Source: a virus
IMG/VR virus record: IMGVR_UViG_3300048930_000663
Coordinates: 1-20,104 of that record
Direction: 5' to 3' (one strand)
Length of the DNA: 20,104 bases
Each line of letters begins with the position of its first letter. Positions within the stretch are counted from its first letter, which is position 1. The translations under genes were made by a program, and so were the position numbers. The notes under the pieces were generated by a model. That model saw nothing but the letters and a program-made list of their open reading frames with translations. It did no database searches and was not told where the DNA came from. Shown here piece after piece: positions 5,981-20,104 of the stretch.

Positions 5981-6090
5981 CACGGCCGCCGCACCTTGTT
6001 GACCAGGTGCACCGCGCCCCAGAGCACCGCGAACAGCAGCGCCACCGGCAGCAGAACAACCAGGCCCAACCCGAGAACGAACTCGATCAT
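5980..6090 (-). CDS. Very small membrane protein (36 aa)
   Basis: A 36-residue ORF, almost entirely one hydrophobic helix (FVLGLGLVVLLPVALLFAVL) with a short basic end (NKVRRP). The start overlaps the transglycosylase stop as ATGA and the stop overlaps the next start as TGATG. The family is unknown. Together with the 29-, 48- and 133-residue proteins it forms a run of four small membrane genes in the lysis region. Confidence 0.72.
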   Translation of the reverse strand: MIEFVLGLGLVVLLPVALLFAVLWGAVHLVNKVRRP

Positions 6091-6827
6091 CGGTCGCACT
6101 CCAATGAACCGGCCCACCCAGCAGCGGCGTAAGCCGGCTCCAGCAGTTTCAGGATTCTCTGGACGTAGCCGCGGTTCTCGGTCCAGGCCCAGCGCGCCCG
6201 GCGGGATTCGCGCGCGACGTGGCCGAACCAGCGCGACCTGTCTCTTCCGGCAGCAAGCGCCAGCGCCTGGTCGCGCCAAACCCAGCGCTCGCCACCGTTG
6301 TATCCGGCGAGCGCAAAGGCCCAGGTATCGCAAGACGTCGCGCCTGGATTGCGCCGATGCAGGTGCGCCATGTACTGCGCCTGCGCACGGAGCGCCCAGT
6401 GCGGGTCCCAAGGGTCCGGCTTGCCGACCGCTGGATAGGCTTGCGCGATCCAGTCAGCCGTTGCCGGCGTGAACTGGGTCAGCCCTTCGGCGTAGGGACT
6501 TCGCGCCTTGGCGCGCCAGCGGCTCTCCTGGTGGACCTGCGCAGCGAGCAATGCCGTGGGCGGGTGCAGGCCCCAGTGCAGGACCGCATGCCGCTCCAGC
6601 GTCAGCCGCCACGCCGTTGGGATGGTCGGGATCTGCGGCACGTCCGCGCTGGCCGCTTCGGCCTTGGAACAGGACACTGCGAGCAATGCCACGAGCAGCG
6701 CCCCGACCAGCACTCCGCTGACCCAGCTGATCGTATGGGTGAGCAGCTGCTGCGACAGGCCGGTCAGCTGCGCGGCGCCCGCCGCGGCCGCGCTGGCCTT
6801 GCGGGCGATGGCCTTCAGCAGGCTCAC
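6087..6827 (-). CDS. Membrane-anchored lytic transglycosylase (SLT/lysozyme-like), phage endolysin
   Basis: A 246-residue protein with an N-terminal hydrophobic segment (about residues 32-52) followed by a transglycosylase SLT domain. The catalytic glutamate is E101 in VHQESRW, followed by AEGLTQFTPATA (113-124) and ALAGYNGG (172-179), the classic three motifs. It cleaves peptidoglycan glycan strands with formation of 1,6-anhydro ends. The hydrophobic segment could be a signal-anchor that lets the enzyme reach the periplasm through the Sec pathway, as in SAR endolysins, or a cleaved signal. LLAVSC does not fit a lipobox well. The start is the GTG at 6827, overlapping the holin stop as GTGA. 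Confidence 0.93.
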   Translation of the reverse strand: MSLLKAIARKASAAAAGAAQLTGLSQQLLTHTISWVSGVLVGALLVALLAVSCSKAEAASADVPQIPTIPTAWRLTLERHAVLHWGLHPPTALLAAQVHQESRWRAKARSPYAEGLTQFTPATADWIAQAYPAVGKPDPWDPHWALRAQAQYMAHLHRRNPGATSCDTWAFALAGYNGGERWVWRDQALALAAGRDRSRWFGHVARESRRARWAWTENRGYVQRILKLLEPAYAAAGWAGSLECDR

Positions 6828-7111
6828 GGGATCAGCCCCGCAGCCACGATGCACGCGGCAACAGTCAGCGCCCGGCGCTTGTAGGCAAGCCCCTGTTCGA
6901 TGCCGTCAAGCTGCTCGGGCGTCGCGTCCGGGTTCTGGCTCCAGTCGATCAGGAAGCCGGCGGTGGCGCCGAGGCTCAGCTTGGTAAGGCCCCACATCAG
7001 CAGCCCGAACTTCGCGGGCGCGAGCACGAGGACCACGATGAAGCTGAGCAGGAACACGCTGGGCATGGCCCACATCGCCCAGCGGTGGATGGCTTGCTGC
7101 AATCGACTCAT
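6824..7111 (-). CDS. Putative holin, three-span membrane protein
   Basis: A 95-residue protein with three predicted membrane segments: about 13-31 (MWAMPSVFLLSFIVVLVLA), 35-55 (FGLLMWGLTKLSLGATAGFLI) and 81-94. A polar loop between the last two contains DWSQNPDATPEQLDG. It is the first gene of the lysis cassette, directly upstream of and overlapping the endolysin. Small membrane proteins with a DW...P sequence like this precede the endolysin in B3-like phages and are usually annotated as holins. The ATG at 7111 has a good ribosome-binding site (CAGGAG, eight bases upstream). The role is inferred from size, topology and place. Confidence 0.82.
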   Translation of the reverse strand: MSRLQQAIHRWAMWAMPSVFLLSFIVVLVLAPAKFGLLMWGLTKLSLGATAGFLIDWSQNPDATPEQLDGIEQGLAYKRRALTVAACIVAAGLIP

Positions 7112-7357: not shown

Positions 7358-8293
7358 TCAATAGGGGCCCAAGAATCGCTCACCATTGAAATGGGTCAGG
7401 TGATCCGGTTCATCGGCAGCCCAAGCTTCCGTTTCCCAAGCAATGTCAGCCAAGTACTTGCGCATGATTGCGCGGCTCGGGAAGGCAGAGACATAGATTA
7501 CGCCGGCAGTGCTATTCGCGAACAGCTTGGCGAGCTCGCCGTGGCGCTTAGCGTCCACGGGGCCGTGCGAAGACGCAGCCTCGGCCAAGATCAGCCAGTT
7601 CCGGGCTATGTCGTGGAGGACGACATCGGGCAGCTTGCCGTGATTGTCGACGACTACGCCCAGCGCTGCCAGGGCGTCGCGATCAAAGTAGCCATGCTTG
7701 TCACCAGTATCGCCGGCGTAGAGCAGCATGGCACCGCGCACAAACCTCGGCGCGAACTGCTCGATGACGTCGCGGATAAGCTCGCTATGTGCGCCTGGCG
7801 AAAGCACCAACTGCCCGCCAGGTATCGCCACAGGCACCTGTGCCAGGTCGCGCGCTTTGCCGTACTTTGCAGCAAGCCCTGGTTTAACCTTTAAAAACGC
7901 GGCAAGCGCCGCGTCCCAATCCTTGCTACCAAACTGGCGAACCAGCGCTAGTGTTTCTGGAGAAACCTGGTAGCAGTTATCTGGGCTGTTGACCGGCCTC
8001 GCCGGATCGTCAGGATTGTACAGCACCAACCCCGCCTCGATCATTTGATGGAGCGAGAACCTCCGCAGCGTTTCGCGCGAGTTCGGGGCATAGTGCTTAT
8101 CGTAGTGATCGCGCAGCCATTGCATGATCTCCACCGTGCGCCAGCGATTCGCCCCGTCTGCGTTCGCCCACGGCGAACTGGGTCGCAGGTTCAATAGCGC
8201 CAGCAGAATGTACGCGGTGCGGTCATTCTGTTGTGCCTGCGGCATGTTGAGCAAGGCCAGAATGCGCTTGGCCTGATCGATCCGTTCCCTCAT
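7358..8293 (-). CDS. Type II restriction endonuclease, BsuBI/PstI family
   Basis: A 311-residue protein, close to the length of known members (R.BsuBI and R.PstI are a little over 310-320). Residues 1-130 look like the N-terminal helical/winged-helix DNA-binding domain. The C-terminal domain carries the family landmarks: PGGQLVLSPGAHSELI (158-173), FAPRFVRGAMLLYAGDTGDKH (180-200), KLPDVVLHD (220-228), WLILAEAASSHGPVDAKR (233-250), IYVSAF (266-271), IAWETEAWAADEPDH (284-298) and FNGERFLGP at the end. The PD at 222-223 with E238 and the SHGP...K segment form the likely metal-dependent active site. The expected specificity by family is CTGCAG, but this is not shown by the sequence. The start ATG at 8293 overlaps the methyltransferase stop (ATGA). 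It is A+T-richer than its neighbours. Confidence 0.93.
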   Translation of the reverse strand: MRERIDQAKRILALLNMPQAQQNDRTAYILLALLNLRPSSPWANADGANRWRTVEIMQWLRDHYDKHYAPNSRETLRRFSLHQMIEAGLVLYNPDDPARPVNSPDNCYQVSPETLALVRQFGSKDWDAALAAFLKVKPGLAAKYGKARDLAQVPVAIPGGQLVLSPGAHSELIRDVIEQFAPRFVRGAMLLYAGDTGDKHGYFDRDALAALGVVVDNHGKLPDVVLHDIARNWLILAEAASSHGPVDAKRHGELAKLFANSTAGVIYVSAFPSRAIMRKYLADIAWETEAWAADEPDHLTHFNGERFLGPY

Positions 8294-9768
8294 GCCAACA
8301 ACTCCCCCACAAGTCCGTCTAGCGTACCCTGGTCCGGTGGGGAAAGTTTCTTCACCTTCTTTCCCAACGCTTCCAGTGCGGAGCGTTCGGGGTAGCGTAT
8401 GTTGCGCAGATCGGTCGCGTTGACCTGGGTATGTCCCGAGAAGCGGCGCAAGTGTTGATCTAGCACGGTCGAGTTGAGCCAGGCATAAAGGCCCCACGCC
8501 AACGCCTCAGGCAGACCTTGTTTGCCCGCGTGGAAGACATTCATGTGGTTCTCGAAACCAACGCGCGAGGAAGGCAGCGCGTCGCCAGGGAGCAGATACG
8601 CCACTATGCGGCGCTTCTCCTCCTTCGATGAAAAGCGACGGGTCAGGACATATGTTCCTGCTGGAAACAGCCAGCGGGATGTGCGTTCGTTATGCGCGAT
8701 GGCGTTGGCCTTCTTGCTACGAGCTGCTGGCCAAGCCAAGGTAGAACCAAGCAGGTGATGGGGATAGATTAAGGGCACATCGCCAGGGCCAGGTTCCTGG
8801 CGCAGGTCCTCGCGCATGCGGAAGTCCACCACTGGCCCCGTGGAAACGCCCACGCCCAAGTCAGAGAGCGAAGACGCCACGCGTTTCGTGTCCAACGGGT
8901 CGGCAGTACCGTTTGGCACATGGAGGAACCGTTCACGGTCACCGGGGCGGAAGATGGCTGAGTACGGCACCGTCTCTTGGGCCAAGTCCGTGAAGGTGTC
9001 GTCGGTCGAGTGCGACACTTGGACCAGCCCTTCCTGTCCTCCCCGCTCAATGCGCAGGATGATGTTTTCCTGCAGCACGTCGTCGTCACGGAAGGCGCTA
9101 TCGCGGCTGCCGAACAGGTGCAGGTGGCGGATTGCGCCATGCGCGCGCATCCATTCTCGAAAGGGCTTGTAGTAGGGGCCGTTGGCGAAACTGCGCGGAA
9201 TGATTGCCACTAGCTGCCCGCCTGGGCATAGAAGAGACAAAGCCAAGCCCACGAACGCTGAGTAGAGGTTCACCGTCTCCAAGCCGGTGCGACTGGCTGC
9301 TGCCCTGGCGTCTGAGCTGGTGGAGATCTTCTTGTAGGGCGGGTTGAGGATGGCATGCGTGAACGGCGCCTCGCCCGAGGCGATTCGATGCGCAGCGTGG
9401 TCCAGGAAATCTCCAGCGTGAACGACGCTTCGGGCCGAGTAGCCGGCCAGGGTGGCCGTTAGATTCTCGCGCAGGCGGTTGTCGATCTCGTAAGCCTCCA
9501 CCATCGCCCCTGGGTCCTGCCAGCGGTCCAAGACGGCGCAGGTCAGAGCGCCCAGGCCAGCGCCGGCGTCCAGAAGCCGGCGCGGACCAAGGCCATCCGG
9601 GAACAGTGAGGCCATGAAGCCCGCGACGCTGGCCGGGGTCATGAACTGCCCCAGTGCGGCCTTGTGGTCGCGCGGCGTCGCTGCGTGGATCTCATTGCGA
9701 TGGGTTTCAGCGATATGAAGCATTGGTGCGAGCTGTTCCACAAGGTGATGGGGCGTTTGGCTCGTCAT
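8290..9768 (-). CDS. Type II DNA adenine-N6 methyltransferase, BsuBI/PstI-type partner
   Basis: A 492-residue gamma-class methyltransferase. Motif X is GQFMTP (40-45), motif I (SAM binding) is LLDAGAGLG (65-73), motif II has EAYEID (91-96), GDF is at 119-121, and the catalytic motif IV is NPPY (142-145). The C-terminal half has no motif I recognised by eye and should hold the target-recognition domain. Size and place fit M.BsuBI/M.PstI (about 500 residues), which methylate adenine in CTGCAG. It is encoded before the endonuclease and overlaps it by four bases, so the methylase would be made first. A GAGAGGG sequence lies about 12 bases before the ATG, rather far. No controller (C) gene was seen nearby. 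Confidence 0.94.
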   Translation of the reverse strand: MTSQTPHHLVEQLAPMLHIAETHRNEIHAATPRDHKAALGQFMTPASVAGFMASLFPDGLGPRRLLDAGAGLGALTCAVLDRWQDPGAMVEAYEIDNRLRENLTATLAGYSARSVVHAGDFLDHAAHRIASGEAPFTHAILNPPYKKISTSSDARAAASRTGLETVNLYSAFVGLALSLLCPGGQLVAIIPRSFANGPYYKPFREWMRAHGAIRHLHLFGSRDSAFRDDDVLQENIILRIERGGQEGLVQVSHSTDDTFTDLAQETVPYSAIFRPGDRERFLHVPNGTADPLDTKRVASSLSDLGVGVSTGPVVDFRMREDLRQEPGPGDVPLIYPHHLLGSTLAWPAARSKKANAIAHNERTSRWLFPAGTYVLTRRFSSKEEKRRIVAYLLPGDALPSSRVGFENHMNVFHAGKQGLPEALAWGLYAWLNSTVLDQHLRRFSGHTQVNATDLRNIRYPERSALEALGKKVKKLSPPDQGTLDGLVGELLA

Positions 9769-9960: not shown

Positions 9961-10182
9961 CTAAGTGCCTTCGGGCACGATCCCGCGCGCGCTTCTCAAG
10001 GACCCTGCGATCGCGTTCAATTGCCTGACAAGCTCCTGTGCTGTTCGCTCATTTCCGGGGAAAGACTGCGAACAGCCGCAGATCATGCAGGTTGCGGTGT
10101 GACGTCCGGTTCCATCTGCGCTGATTCTTGTGGACGTCCATTTTCCACAGGGCACACAGGGGGCCAGAACAACCTGGTTCAT
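9961..10182 (-). CDS. Small cysteine-rich, zinc-ribbon-like protein (73 aa), family unknown
   Basis: A 73-residue ORF starting at an ATG that shares one base with the stop of the upstream 23-codon ORF (TGATG). It has two CxxC pairs: CVPC near residues 9-12 and CMIC near 32-35, with a CGC shortly after, separated by a K/R/T-rich loop. This is the usual layout of a zinc ribbon. A helical end (AQELVRQLNAIAGSLRS) follows. An in-frame longer ORF (to 10332) exists but would run over the upstream ORF with less convincing sequence. No family was recognised. It could be a DNA- or RNA-binding regulator, or the two ORFs could be one gene with a frameshift. Confidence 0.55.
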   Translation of the reverse strand: MNQVVLAPCVPCGKWTSTRISADGTGRHTATCMICGCSQSFPGNERTAQELVRQLNAIAGSLRSARGIVPEGT

Positions 10183-10253
10183 CAGGCTTCTGGCGCCACT
10201 AGCTCGCACAGGGTGCCGCACTTGCTGCACCGAATGTCTGTCTTTGACGTCAT
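10182..10253 (-). CDS. 23-residue Com-like cysteine-rich mini-ORF
   Basis: A 23-residue ORF with the sequence IRCSKCGTLCELV near its middle. The IRCxxC start resembles Com, the small zinc-finger translational activator of Mu mom, but Com proteins are about 60 residues and have two CxxC pairs, so this is at most the first half. A purine-rich GGGGG sequence lies seven to eight bases before the ATG, and the stop overlaps the next start as TGATG. The position just after mor and before a DNA-modifying gene is the kind of place where com-mom-like genes can occur. Together with the next ORF it may be a broken or split Com-like zinc-ribbon gene. Confidence 0.4.
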   Translation of the reverse strand: MTSKTDIRCSKCGTLCELVAPEA

Positions 10254-10343
10254 AAGCGCTACCCCCGAGGCTGCCGAAGAATGCTTCTCGACGGATGCTC
10301 CCGTCGGGGGATCCTGATAGGCAGGGTGTCAAACACTCTCACC

Positions 10344-10392: not shown

Positions 10393-10806
10393 TCACCTTG
10401 CGGCGAACAGCGGCATTTGCACCCGCGCCCGGTGCAGCTCCAGTTGCCGCTTGACGATGTTCTGCACCTGGCGTTCGGTCAGGTCATAGCGGCGGGCCAG
10501 CGCCTCGGTGTTGCCGCGGCGGTGCGCGCGGTAGATCTCGTCGTCGCGCAGGGCTTGCTCGAGCTGCTTGCCGCGCGGCAGGTAGAGGTGGCGACCGCCC
10601 TGATAGAGCGATTGCGCGATGACCATGGCACGGGCGTAGCGCTCGGCCTGTTCCTCCGGCAAGCCCATGTGCACCAGGGCGGCGGTCTGGACCTCGATCA
10701 GATCCACGATCAGCTGCGGCCAGCGGGCGTCGTCGCGTGTACGCGCCACGTTGCCCGCCAACTCGGCGGCGGCTTCGGGTTCGAGGCGGAAGGCTGCCTG
10801 GCTCAC
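10393..10806 (-). CDS. mor: Mor-family transcription activator
   Basis: A 137-residue protein of nearly the same length as Mu Mor (129). Residues 30-68 form the N-terminal dimerisation helices (QLIVDLIEVQTAALVHMGLP). The family signature GGRHLYLPRG is at 70-79, then LRDDEIYRAHRRGNTEALARRYDLTERQVQNIVKRQ (86-121), which is the helix-turn-helix. Mor activates the middle promoter in Mu; in related phages with a single Mor/C protein it is likely to drive later genes as well. It is the last gene of the early operon. The start is a GTG at 10806 overlapping the previous stop (GTGA). Confidence 0.93.
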   Translation of the reverse strand: MSQAAFRLEPEAAAELAGNVARTRDDARWPQLIVDLIEVQTAALVHMGLPEEQAERYARAMVIAQSLYQGGRHLYLPRGKQLEQALRDDEIYRAHRRGNTEALARRYDLTERQVQNIVKRQLELHRARVQMPLFAAR

Positions 10807-11411
10807 GCAGGAACCTCGCGCGCGGCGTCGATGTTGTCGAGCATCTTCCCGGCTCGCGCCGCACTGACATCGCACTGGCCGAGCTGTGCCATTGCCTGGT
10901 CGCGCGTGATTCTGCCTTCGCCGTAGGCCTCGCAGGCATCGCGGATCGGATCGTCCGGGGCGTTGCGCTTGATTCGCGGGCCTTCCACGGGTGCCGTGAA
11001 CCGAGCCTGCTCACGCTGCGCGCGGAACTCGGTGCTAGTGGCCAGCTTGTGCACGCATGCCCGCAGCAGGCCGTGGCCGGAAAGCGGCAGGGACAGCTCG
11101 TCGCGCTGGTCAACCAGGCGCTCGATGCCGGCGATCCACACCCAGGGTGACGTGCGCACCTGGTCGCCCTTCCAGGAGATGGTCCCGGCGTGCACCAGGT
11201 CGATAAGTTCGCCGACAATCCGGGCCGCGCGGCCGAGCTTGAGCGCGCGCTTGGTCGGCTTGTGCAGCGCCAGGTAAGCCAGTGCCGCCCGGCCCAGATC
11301 CGGCGCCAGCTCCGCCATCAGCGCAGCCAGCGCCTTGCCATCACGCTCGATCAAGCCGGCCTCCAACGGGAAGCAGAGCTGGCAGCTCGGGCAGGTGACA
11401 TTCACGGTCAC
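10803..11411 (-). CDS. Hypothetical phage protein with N-terminal zinc-binding cysteines (202 aa)
   Basis: A 202-residue protein. The start of the protein is VNVTCPSCQLCFPLEAGL, a CxxCxxC cysteine cluster, followed by helices (RDGKALAALMAELAPDLGRAALAYLALHKP) and a long helical remainder. Similar proteins are common in the early region of Mu-like phages of high-GC hosts but have no assigned function. The presumed start is a GTG at 11411 overlapping the upstream stop (GTGA). A second in-frame GTG is two codons downstream. A possible replication or nucleic-acid-binding role is inferred only from place and the cysteine motif. Confidence 0.82.
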   Translation of the reverse strand: MTVNVTCPSCQLCFPLEAGLIERDGKALAALMAELAPDLGRAALAYLALHKPTKRALKLGRAARIVGELIDLVHAGTISWKGDQVRTSPWVWIAGIERLVDQRDELSLPLSGHGLLRACVHKLATSTEFRAQREQARFTAPVEGPRIKRNAPDDPIRDACEAYGEGRITRDQAMAQLGQCDVSAARAGKMLDNIDAAREVPA

Positions 11412-19741: not shown

Positions 19742-20104
19742 CCTTAAACGCCATTTGAGGCACCAATGAAGAACAGCTGCGCCGGCGTCGGACTTTTCAA
19801 GCGATGTGTCCCGACCGGGCCACCCAGGTCGGATCTTTCAGACTGCGGCGCGGCGCCCGTTCCGATTGCAGGCTACAGCAGCAGCGGCAAAAACCGCACA
19901 ACCACGCCATCGGTCCCAGCCCATCCCACTCAGTCCCAGCCCATCCCGGTTTCTTTCTCTTCTAGTGTCCCGGTGCAAGGTTGGTGCGAGTCAGGCTGAC
20001 GTAGAGCAGGCGATTGTCACGGGACTGTCGACAACCCACGTCTCGCTTGGGAGTATCGATCCCGTCGCTGCCTCGGATTGAATCGCAGCTGGTTCCGGAG
20101 GGCC
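19742..20104. other. Gene-free stretch after the repressor: expected phage left end and host junction
   Basis: No convincing gene was found in these 363 bases. In Mu-like phages the transposase-binding left end lies just beyond the repressor gene, so the junction with host DNA should be here. Visible structure is a 15-bp direct repeat pair (19913-19927 and 19933-19947) and shorter repeats such as GGTGCAAG (19972-19979) and GGTGCGAG (19983-19990). One candidate terminus in ACA is at 20030-20032 (the palindrome TGTCGACA), but nothing proves it. Short open frames here run over this DNA but lack gene-like sequence. Confidence 0.5.
19913..19947. repeat. 15-bp direct repeat pair with 20-bp period, candidate transposase-binding sites
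   Basis: GTCCCAGCCCATCCC occurs twice without mismatch, at 19913-19927 and 19933-19947, giving a 20-bp period close to two DNA turns. MuA-family transposases bind repeated sites of about 22 bp at each phage end, and this is where the left-end sites are expected. No third copy was found in the window. Confidence 0.65.

What the first reader, a model, noticed from the sequence alone, without database searches (positions are those of the whole stretch)
7358..9768. Complete BsuBI/PstI-type restriction-modification pair inserted in a Mu-like prophage between mor and lysis genes
The two overlapping genes have the full set of family landmarks: methylase GQFMTP, DAGAGLG and NPPY; endonuclease PD...E, SHGP and FNGERFLGP. 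They lie in the reading direction of the phage, exactly where the early/middle region meets the lysis cassette. A phage that carries an intact restriction enzyme must protect its own replicating DNA and would attack other phages in the lysogen. The pair could serve as superinfection exclusion, as an addiction module that makes prophage loss lethal, or, for the methylase, as a functional substitute for Mom-type DNA modification. This is cargo rather than core, and it appears unusual for the phage type.
Basis: partly seen in the sequence, partly recalled or inferred. Interest (0 to 1): 0.75.

Follow-up and report, generated by a model that had tools for sequence, protein, structure and literature searches.

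The report
PstI-type restriction cargo in Mu-like phage
A Mu-like bacterial virus carries, as optional cargo next to its lysis genes, a complete enzyme pair that marks its own and its host's DNA and cuts unmarked DNA, probably to keep rival viruses out; the same kind of pair is already known in other phages, so this is a new example rather than a new kind of system.

Summary
Window 7358-8293 (-) encodes a 311-aa BsuBI/PstI-family endonuclease with both Pfam domains. Window 8290-9768 (-) encodes a 492-aa gamma-class adenine methylase, and the two genes overlap by 4 bp. They lie between mor and the holin of a Mu-like phage fragment (IMG/VR, 20,104 bp).

The pair is cargo. None of about 140 related Mu-like loci carries it, including 17 in which both flanking genes were found; there the interval is 0.3-2.7 kb and holds other small genes. 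The closest relative found is a chromosomal copy in a Lysobacteraceae-family genome. DNA similarity between the two covers only the two genes (window 7362-9723). Both genes are intact and under purifying selection (dN/dS 0.05 for R, 0.14 for M).

Most likely it acts as a lysogen-encoded restriction barrier at CTGCAG. Shiga-toxin phages carry a related pair (EcoGIII, 54-58% identical) that methylates CTGCAG and is reported to block lambda-like phages. Specificity is inferred: the only solved relative found, SdaI, reads an 8-bp site.

Addiction and a Mom-like role are weaker readings. I found no earlier report of such a pair in a Mu-like phage, but the kind is known.

The parts
7358..8293 (-). 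R: BsuBI/PstI-family type II restriction endonuclease, 311 aa (N-terminal HTH domain + C-terminal PD-(D/E)XK-type domain)
   Evidence: Pfam PF17728 and PF06616; PADLOC REase_II 2.9e-125; SdaI 2ixs E=6e-72; 58-60% identical to phage and plasmid homologues with PD, E and SHGPVD.KRH conserved
8290..9768 (-). M: gamma-class N6-adenine DNA methyltransferase, 492 aa, cognate of R
   Evidence: PF07669; PADLOC MTase_II 1e-175; M.TaqI structural relatives; GQFMTP, DAGAG.GAL, NPPY invariant among five homologues; ATGA overlap with R
7362..9723 (-). Minimal transferred unit: the stretch with DNA similarity (81.6%) to a chromosomal copy in another genome
   Evidence: blastn of window against L211; flanks of L211 are M16-type peptidase and Roadblock/GTPase-type genes by reading, not phage
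9961..10268 (-). Two small cysteine-rich (zinc-ribbon-like) ORFs between mor and M (23 and 73 aa, overlapping as TGATG); coding status uncertain
   Evidence: sequence reading; no Pfam or PHROG match; no Com-family match
10393..10875 (-). Mor-type middle transcription activator (upstream flank)
   Evidence: PF08765 E=3.3e-24
6087..7111 (-). Lysis cassette: holin (6824-7111) and SLT lytic transglycosylase (6087-6854), downstream flank
   Evidence: PHROG holin 2e-7 and endolysin 5e-44; PF01464
11821..18072 (-). Mu-like early region: GemA, Gam, MuB, MuA
   Evidence: PF06252, PF07352, PF09077, PF02914/PF09039

Best explanation
A complete, probably co-transcribed BsuBI/PstI-type R-M pair, acquired from a bacterial (chromosomal or plasmid) pool, sits in the accessory slot between mor and the lysis genes of a Mu-like phage. 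In the lysogen, M methylates the adenine of its target (most likely CTGCAG) in host and prophage DNA. R cleaves unmodified DNA that enters, so the lysogen restricts competing phages and other foreign DNA. During lytic growth the phage's own CTGCAG sites (13 in this fragment) are protected by M. Shown here: family, intactness, gene layout, cargo status, purifying selection. Inferred: target sequence, expression in the lysogen, restriction phenotype.
For: Pfam/PADLOC assignment. ATGA overlap, also seen in the plasmid homologues. dN/dS 0.05 (R) and 0.14 (M) against the closest copy. R and M trees both group window + L211 + L213, so the pair travelled together. Absent from all MuB-related Mu-like loci examined, with 17 carrying both flanks and other content in the gap. 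Homology to the chromosomal copy ends at the edges of the pair. CTGCAG is not depleted, 13 observed vs 12.6 expected, as expected if M protects the phage. Functional precedent: the E. coli phage copy L003 is 100% identical at DNA level to that in O104:H4 genomes; its methylase M.EcoGIII methylates CTGCAG and the system is reported to restrict other lambda-like phages (PMC3893438; PMC6602927).
Against: No expression, methylation or restriction data. The promoter scan upstream of M found no more than chance. The record is an incomplete fragment of one uncultured phage. SdaI, the only solved relative found, reads CCTGCAGG (own knowledge), so the target could differ. CTGCAG is not depleted in most relatives lacking the pair either, so site counts do not discriminate.
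Confidence: 0.72

Rival explanations
1. Addiction module: the pair persists because loss of the prophage leaves undermethylated chromosome that R cuts, so cured cells die.
For: Known behaviour of some type II R-M systems (established knowledge, not tested here). The pair is mobile and also found on many plasmids (153 PLSDB records).
Against: Mu-like prophages integrate by transposition and are not normally excised and lost, so the benefit is small. Not found in related prophages, so not selected as a maintenance device in this group.
Confidence: 0.1
2. Mom substitute: the methylase protects phage DNA from host restriction in the next host, and R is incidental.
For: Mu-like phages often carry DNA-modification genes (established knowledge; Mom reported on Mu-like prophages in PMC12724379). 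No Mom was seen in the fragment, but the right end of the phage is missing.
Against: M is a sequence-specific type II methylase with about 13 sites in 20 kb, giving narrow protection. R is kept under stronger purifying selection than M. No Com-family gene was detected.
Confidence: 0.07
3. Neutral recent passenger: the pair hitchhiked into the slot and has no phage-specific role yet.
For: Seen in one phage record only. Lower G+C than its surroundings. Decay of such pairs in phages happens: a 101-aa R remnant in PhiR12_3.
Against: Both frames intact and low dN/dS, although much of that history may lie outside the phage. The slot carries accessory genes in relatives, so cargo here is tolerated and possibly selected.
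Confidence: 0.11

Closest known systems
EcoGIII R-M pair of Shiga-toxin (lambdoid) phages
   Same: Phage-borne, same family, M upstream of R in the same orientation, M 54% and R 58% identical. CTGCAG methylation by the methylase, and restriction of lambda-like phages, reported (PMC3893438, PMC6602927).
   Different: Lambdoid phage; in PhiR12_3 the R remnant lies next to cI. The window is a Mu-like transposable phage with the pair between mor and lysis.
Chromosomal R-M pair in a Lysobacteraceae-family genome (G138, L211)
   Same: R 91% and M 81% aa identity; same gene order and overlap.
   Different: Flanked by ordinary chromosomal genes, no phage; that genome has no match to this phage's MuB.
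Plasmid BsuBI/PstI-type pairs (e.g. Pseudomonas aeruginosa p60512-NR, Skermanella rosea pSR-4)
   Same: Same family and M-R overlap layout, R 59-60% identical.
   Different: Plasmid context.
SdaI (PDB 2ixs)
   Same: Only solved structure with a full-length match, E=6e-72.
   Different: Recognises CCTGCAGG (own knowledge); distant outgroup in the R tree.

Membership tests
BsuBI/PstI restriction endonuclease | N-terminal HTH domain PF17728 plus C-terminal nuclease domain PF06616 | tested here: met
   157 and 190 bits against cut-offs of 27
BsuBI/PstI restriction endonuclease | Conserved catalytic-region residues PD, E, SHGPVD.KRH as in the phage-borne relative reported active | tested here: met
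   P222 D223 E238 S242-H243-G244-P245-V246-D247 K249-R250-H251 invariant with L003, L007, L008; L003 DNA is 100% identical to O104:H4 copies
BsuBI/PstI restriction endonuclease | Cleaves CTGCA^G | not testable with these tools
   Needs an enzyme assay; supported only by the clade next to the EcoGIII-containing group; SdaI shows that specificity can differ within the fold family
Type II gamma-class m6A methyltransferase | Motif order X (GQFMTP) - I (DAGAGLG) - IV (NPPY), C-terminal target-recognition region | tested here: met
   Motifs conserved in the alignment of five homologues; M.TaqI similarity
Type II R-M system | R and cognate M adjacent, both intact | tested here: met
   4-bp overlap, no stops, dN/dS 0.05 and 0.14
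Mu-like transposable phage | MuA transposase, MuB, Gam, GemA, Mor in Mu order, followed by lysis, terminase and portal genes | tested here: met
   Pfam matches; synteny with relatives
Phage accessory gene (moron-type cargo) | Absent from related phages at the same site, which hold other genes or little | tested here: met
   0 of about 140 related loci carry R or M; 17 with Mor and holin/SLT flanks have gaps of 0.3-2.7 kb with other ORFs
Phage accessory gene (moron-type cargo) | Own promoter and terminator | tested here: inconclusive
   Consensus scan gives chance-level matches
Com-Mom type DNA modification module | Com zinc-ribbon translational activator upstream of the modification gene | tested here: not met
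   PF10122 finds nothing in the record even at E<=10; a 23-aa CxxC peptide upstream of M remains unexplained

The most novel reading that the evidence does not exclude
The pair is wired into the phage's middle/late programme downstream of Mor, with the small zinc-ribbon ORFs acting as a Com-like translational switch, so that a phage-timed site-specific methylase with its own nuclease takes the place of the Com-Mom module and destroys unmodified competitor DNA during the lytic cycle.
Probability: 0.06. Interest if true: 0.6.

Novelty: new member of a known kind. Interest (0 to 1): 0.33.

Why it matters
It extends phage-borne PstI-type restriction, in the papers found here described from Shiga-toxin phages, to a transposable Mu-like phage. 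It also marks the mor-lysis gap as an accessory slot where anti-competitor genes can be looked for. A Mu-like phage that modifies its host's DNA would alter the epigenome of lysogens and limit gene flow into them.

Tried and rejected
Single-sequence scan of IMG/VR with R found no other close copy. Alignment scan found 31 other R loci, none with Mu-like proteins. Depletion of CTGCAG as a mark of long association: not depleted, and relatives vary widely (median O/E 1.2), so uninformative. Com-family test of the small ORFs: negative. Promoter/terminator scan: chance level. PADLOC hits (PDC-M30, PDC-M41) among interval ORFs of relatives were seen in a pooled scan but not pinned to a locus in two follow-ups. 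Literature searches for R-M pairs in Mu-like phages gave no report of this family there, but only open-licence papers were searched. Structure prediction was not run: sequence evidence already fixed the family.

Full report
What is there. Window 8290-9768 (-) encodes a 492-aa DNA methyltransferase and 7358-8293 (-) a 311-aa endonuclease. The stop of M and the start of R overlap as ATGA. R matches both halves of the BsuBI/PstI family in Pfam (PF17728 E=3e-46, PF06616 E=3e-56), PADLOC REase_II (3e-125) and PHROG 1639 (3e-135). M matches Eco57I-type methylases, PADLOC MTase_II (1e-175) and M.TaqI, with motifs X, I and IV in gamma order. The 379-aa ORF in the mechanical list has an upstream extension inside M; homologues start at the internal ATG at 8293.

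The vehicle. The same strand carries MuA, MuB, Gam, GemA, Mor, holin, lytic transglycosylase, terminase and portal in Mu order. The record is an IMG/VR virus fragment of 20,104 bp. Its right end shows conserved phage-end sequence around 19891-19967 shared with L002, beyond which similarity stops. This suggests the phage left end with host DNA attached, but it does not tell a prophage from a packaged genome. The nearest phage relatives that reach the site lie in Lysobacteraceae-family genomes (L212, L214) and metagenomes, which suggests, without proof, a host in that family.

Cargo, not core. tblastn of the window proteins against some 140 MuB-related loci from genomes and IMG/VR finds no R and no M in any. 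In 17 loci with Mor and holin or SLT recognised, the interval is 0.3-2.7 kb and holds other genes: small exported proteins (L212, L214, L130), zinc-ribbon and regulatory proteins, unknowns. G+C over the pair is 58-65% against 65-71% for most of the phage. The closest pair found anywhere (R 91%, M 81% aa) is chromosomal in genome G138, which has no match to this phage's MuB. DNA similarity covers window 7362-9723, that is, the two genes and nothing else. So the two genes moved as a unit; the direction of transfer is not resolved.

Is it functional? Both frames are intact. Against the G138 copy, dN/dS is 0.049 for R and 0.139 for M, so both have been under selection, R more strictly; part of that history lies outside the phage. 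The catalytic-region residues of R are identical to those of the phage and plasmid relatives.

Target. The R and M trees place window + G138 + G160 as one clade near a larger group holding the E. coli phage copies. The E. coli copy fetched here (L003) is 100% identical at DNA level to copies in O104:H4 genomes and is found in 138 of 5426 E. coli genomes, all on chromosomes. Papers report that the O104:H4 methylase M.EcoGIII methylates CTGCAG, that its R is active, and that the system restricts other lambda-like phages (PMC3893438; PMC6602927). CTGCAG is therefore the likely target. The only solved relative found is SdaI, which reads the 8-bp CCTGCAGG (own knowledge), so specificity must be measured. 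The fragment has 13 CTGCAG sites (12.6 expected) and one CCTGCAGG.

How it most likely works. As lysogen-encoded restriction: M keeps host and phage DNA modified, R cuts unmodified newcomers. Addiction fits poorly with a prophage that does not normally excise. A Mom-like protective role fits poorly with a narrow site-specific methylase and with the stricter conservation of R. Timing and promoters are unknown: the scan gave chance-level matches.

Novelty. Phage-borne pairs of this family are known and partly tested in E. coli, and the family is common on plasmids (153 PLSDB records). A copy in a Mu-like phage, at the mor-lysis slot, was not found in the searched papers or collections, but the literature search covered open-licence papers only. 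It is a new member of a known kind.

Noticed in passing
window 9961-10268 (-): Two overlapping small cysteine-rich ORFs (MTSKTDIRCSKCGTLC..., 23 aa; MNQVVLAPCVPCGKW...CMICGC, 73 aa) between mor and M. The first CxxC resembles by eye the start of Mu Com, but there is no Pfam, PHROG or Com-family match.
   Followed up: partly
window 19891-20104: Phage-end-like repeats shared with L002 at 19891-19967, then no similarity to the end: probably the phage left end with host DNA attached.
   Followed up: partly
L212 9534-9881, L214 12900-13322, L130 8971-9345: Relatives carry at the same mor-holin site a family of small exported proteins with a CGEVNAKN.[FY]G.Y motif and no Pfam match.
   Followed up: partly
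L004 (PhiR12_3) 6013-6315: An E. coli lambdoid phage keeps only a 101-aa C-terminal piece of the same R next to cI: a decayed phage-borne pair.
   Followed up: no
L208 (genome G064): The genome that hosts the close phage relative L212 has a separate R homologue with one in-frame TGA.
   Followed up: no
alignment A3 (interval ORFs of Mu-like relatives): Pooled scans show strong PADLOC candidates PDC-M30B (1e-110) and PDC-M41B (1e-109) and DUF5131 (1.6e-109) somewhere in the equivalent intervals; carrier loci not pinned down.
   Followed up: partly
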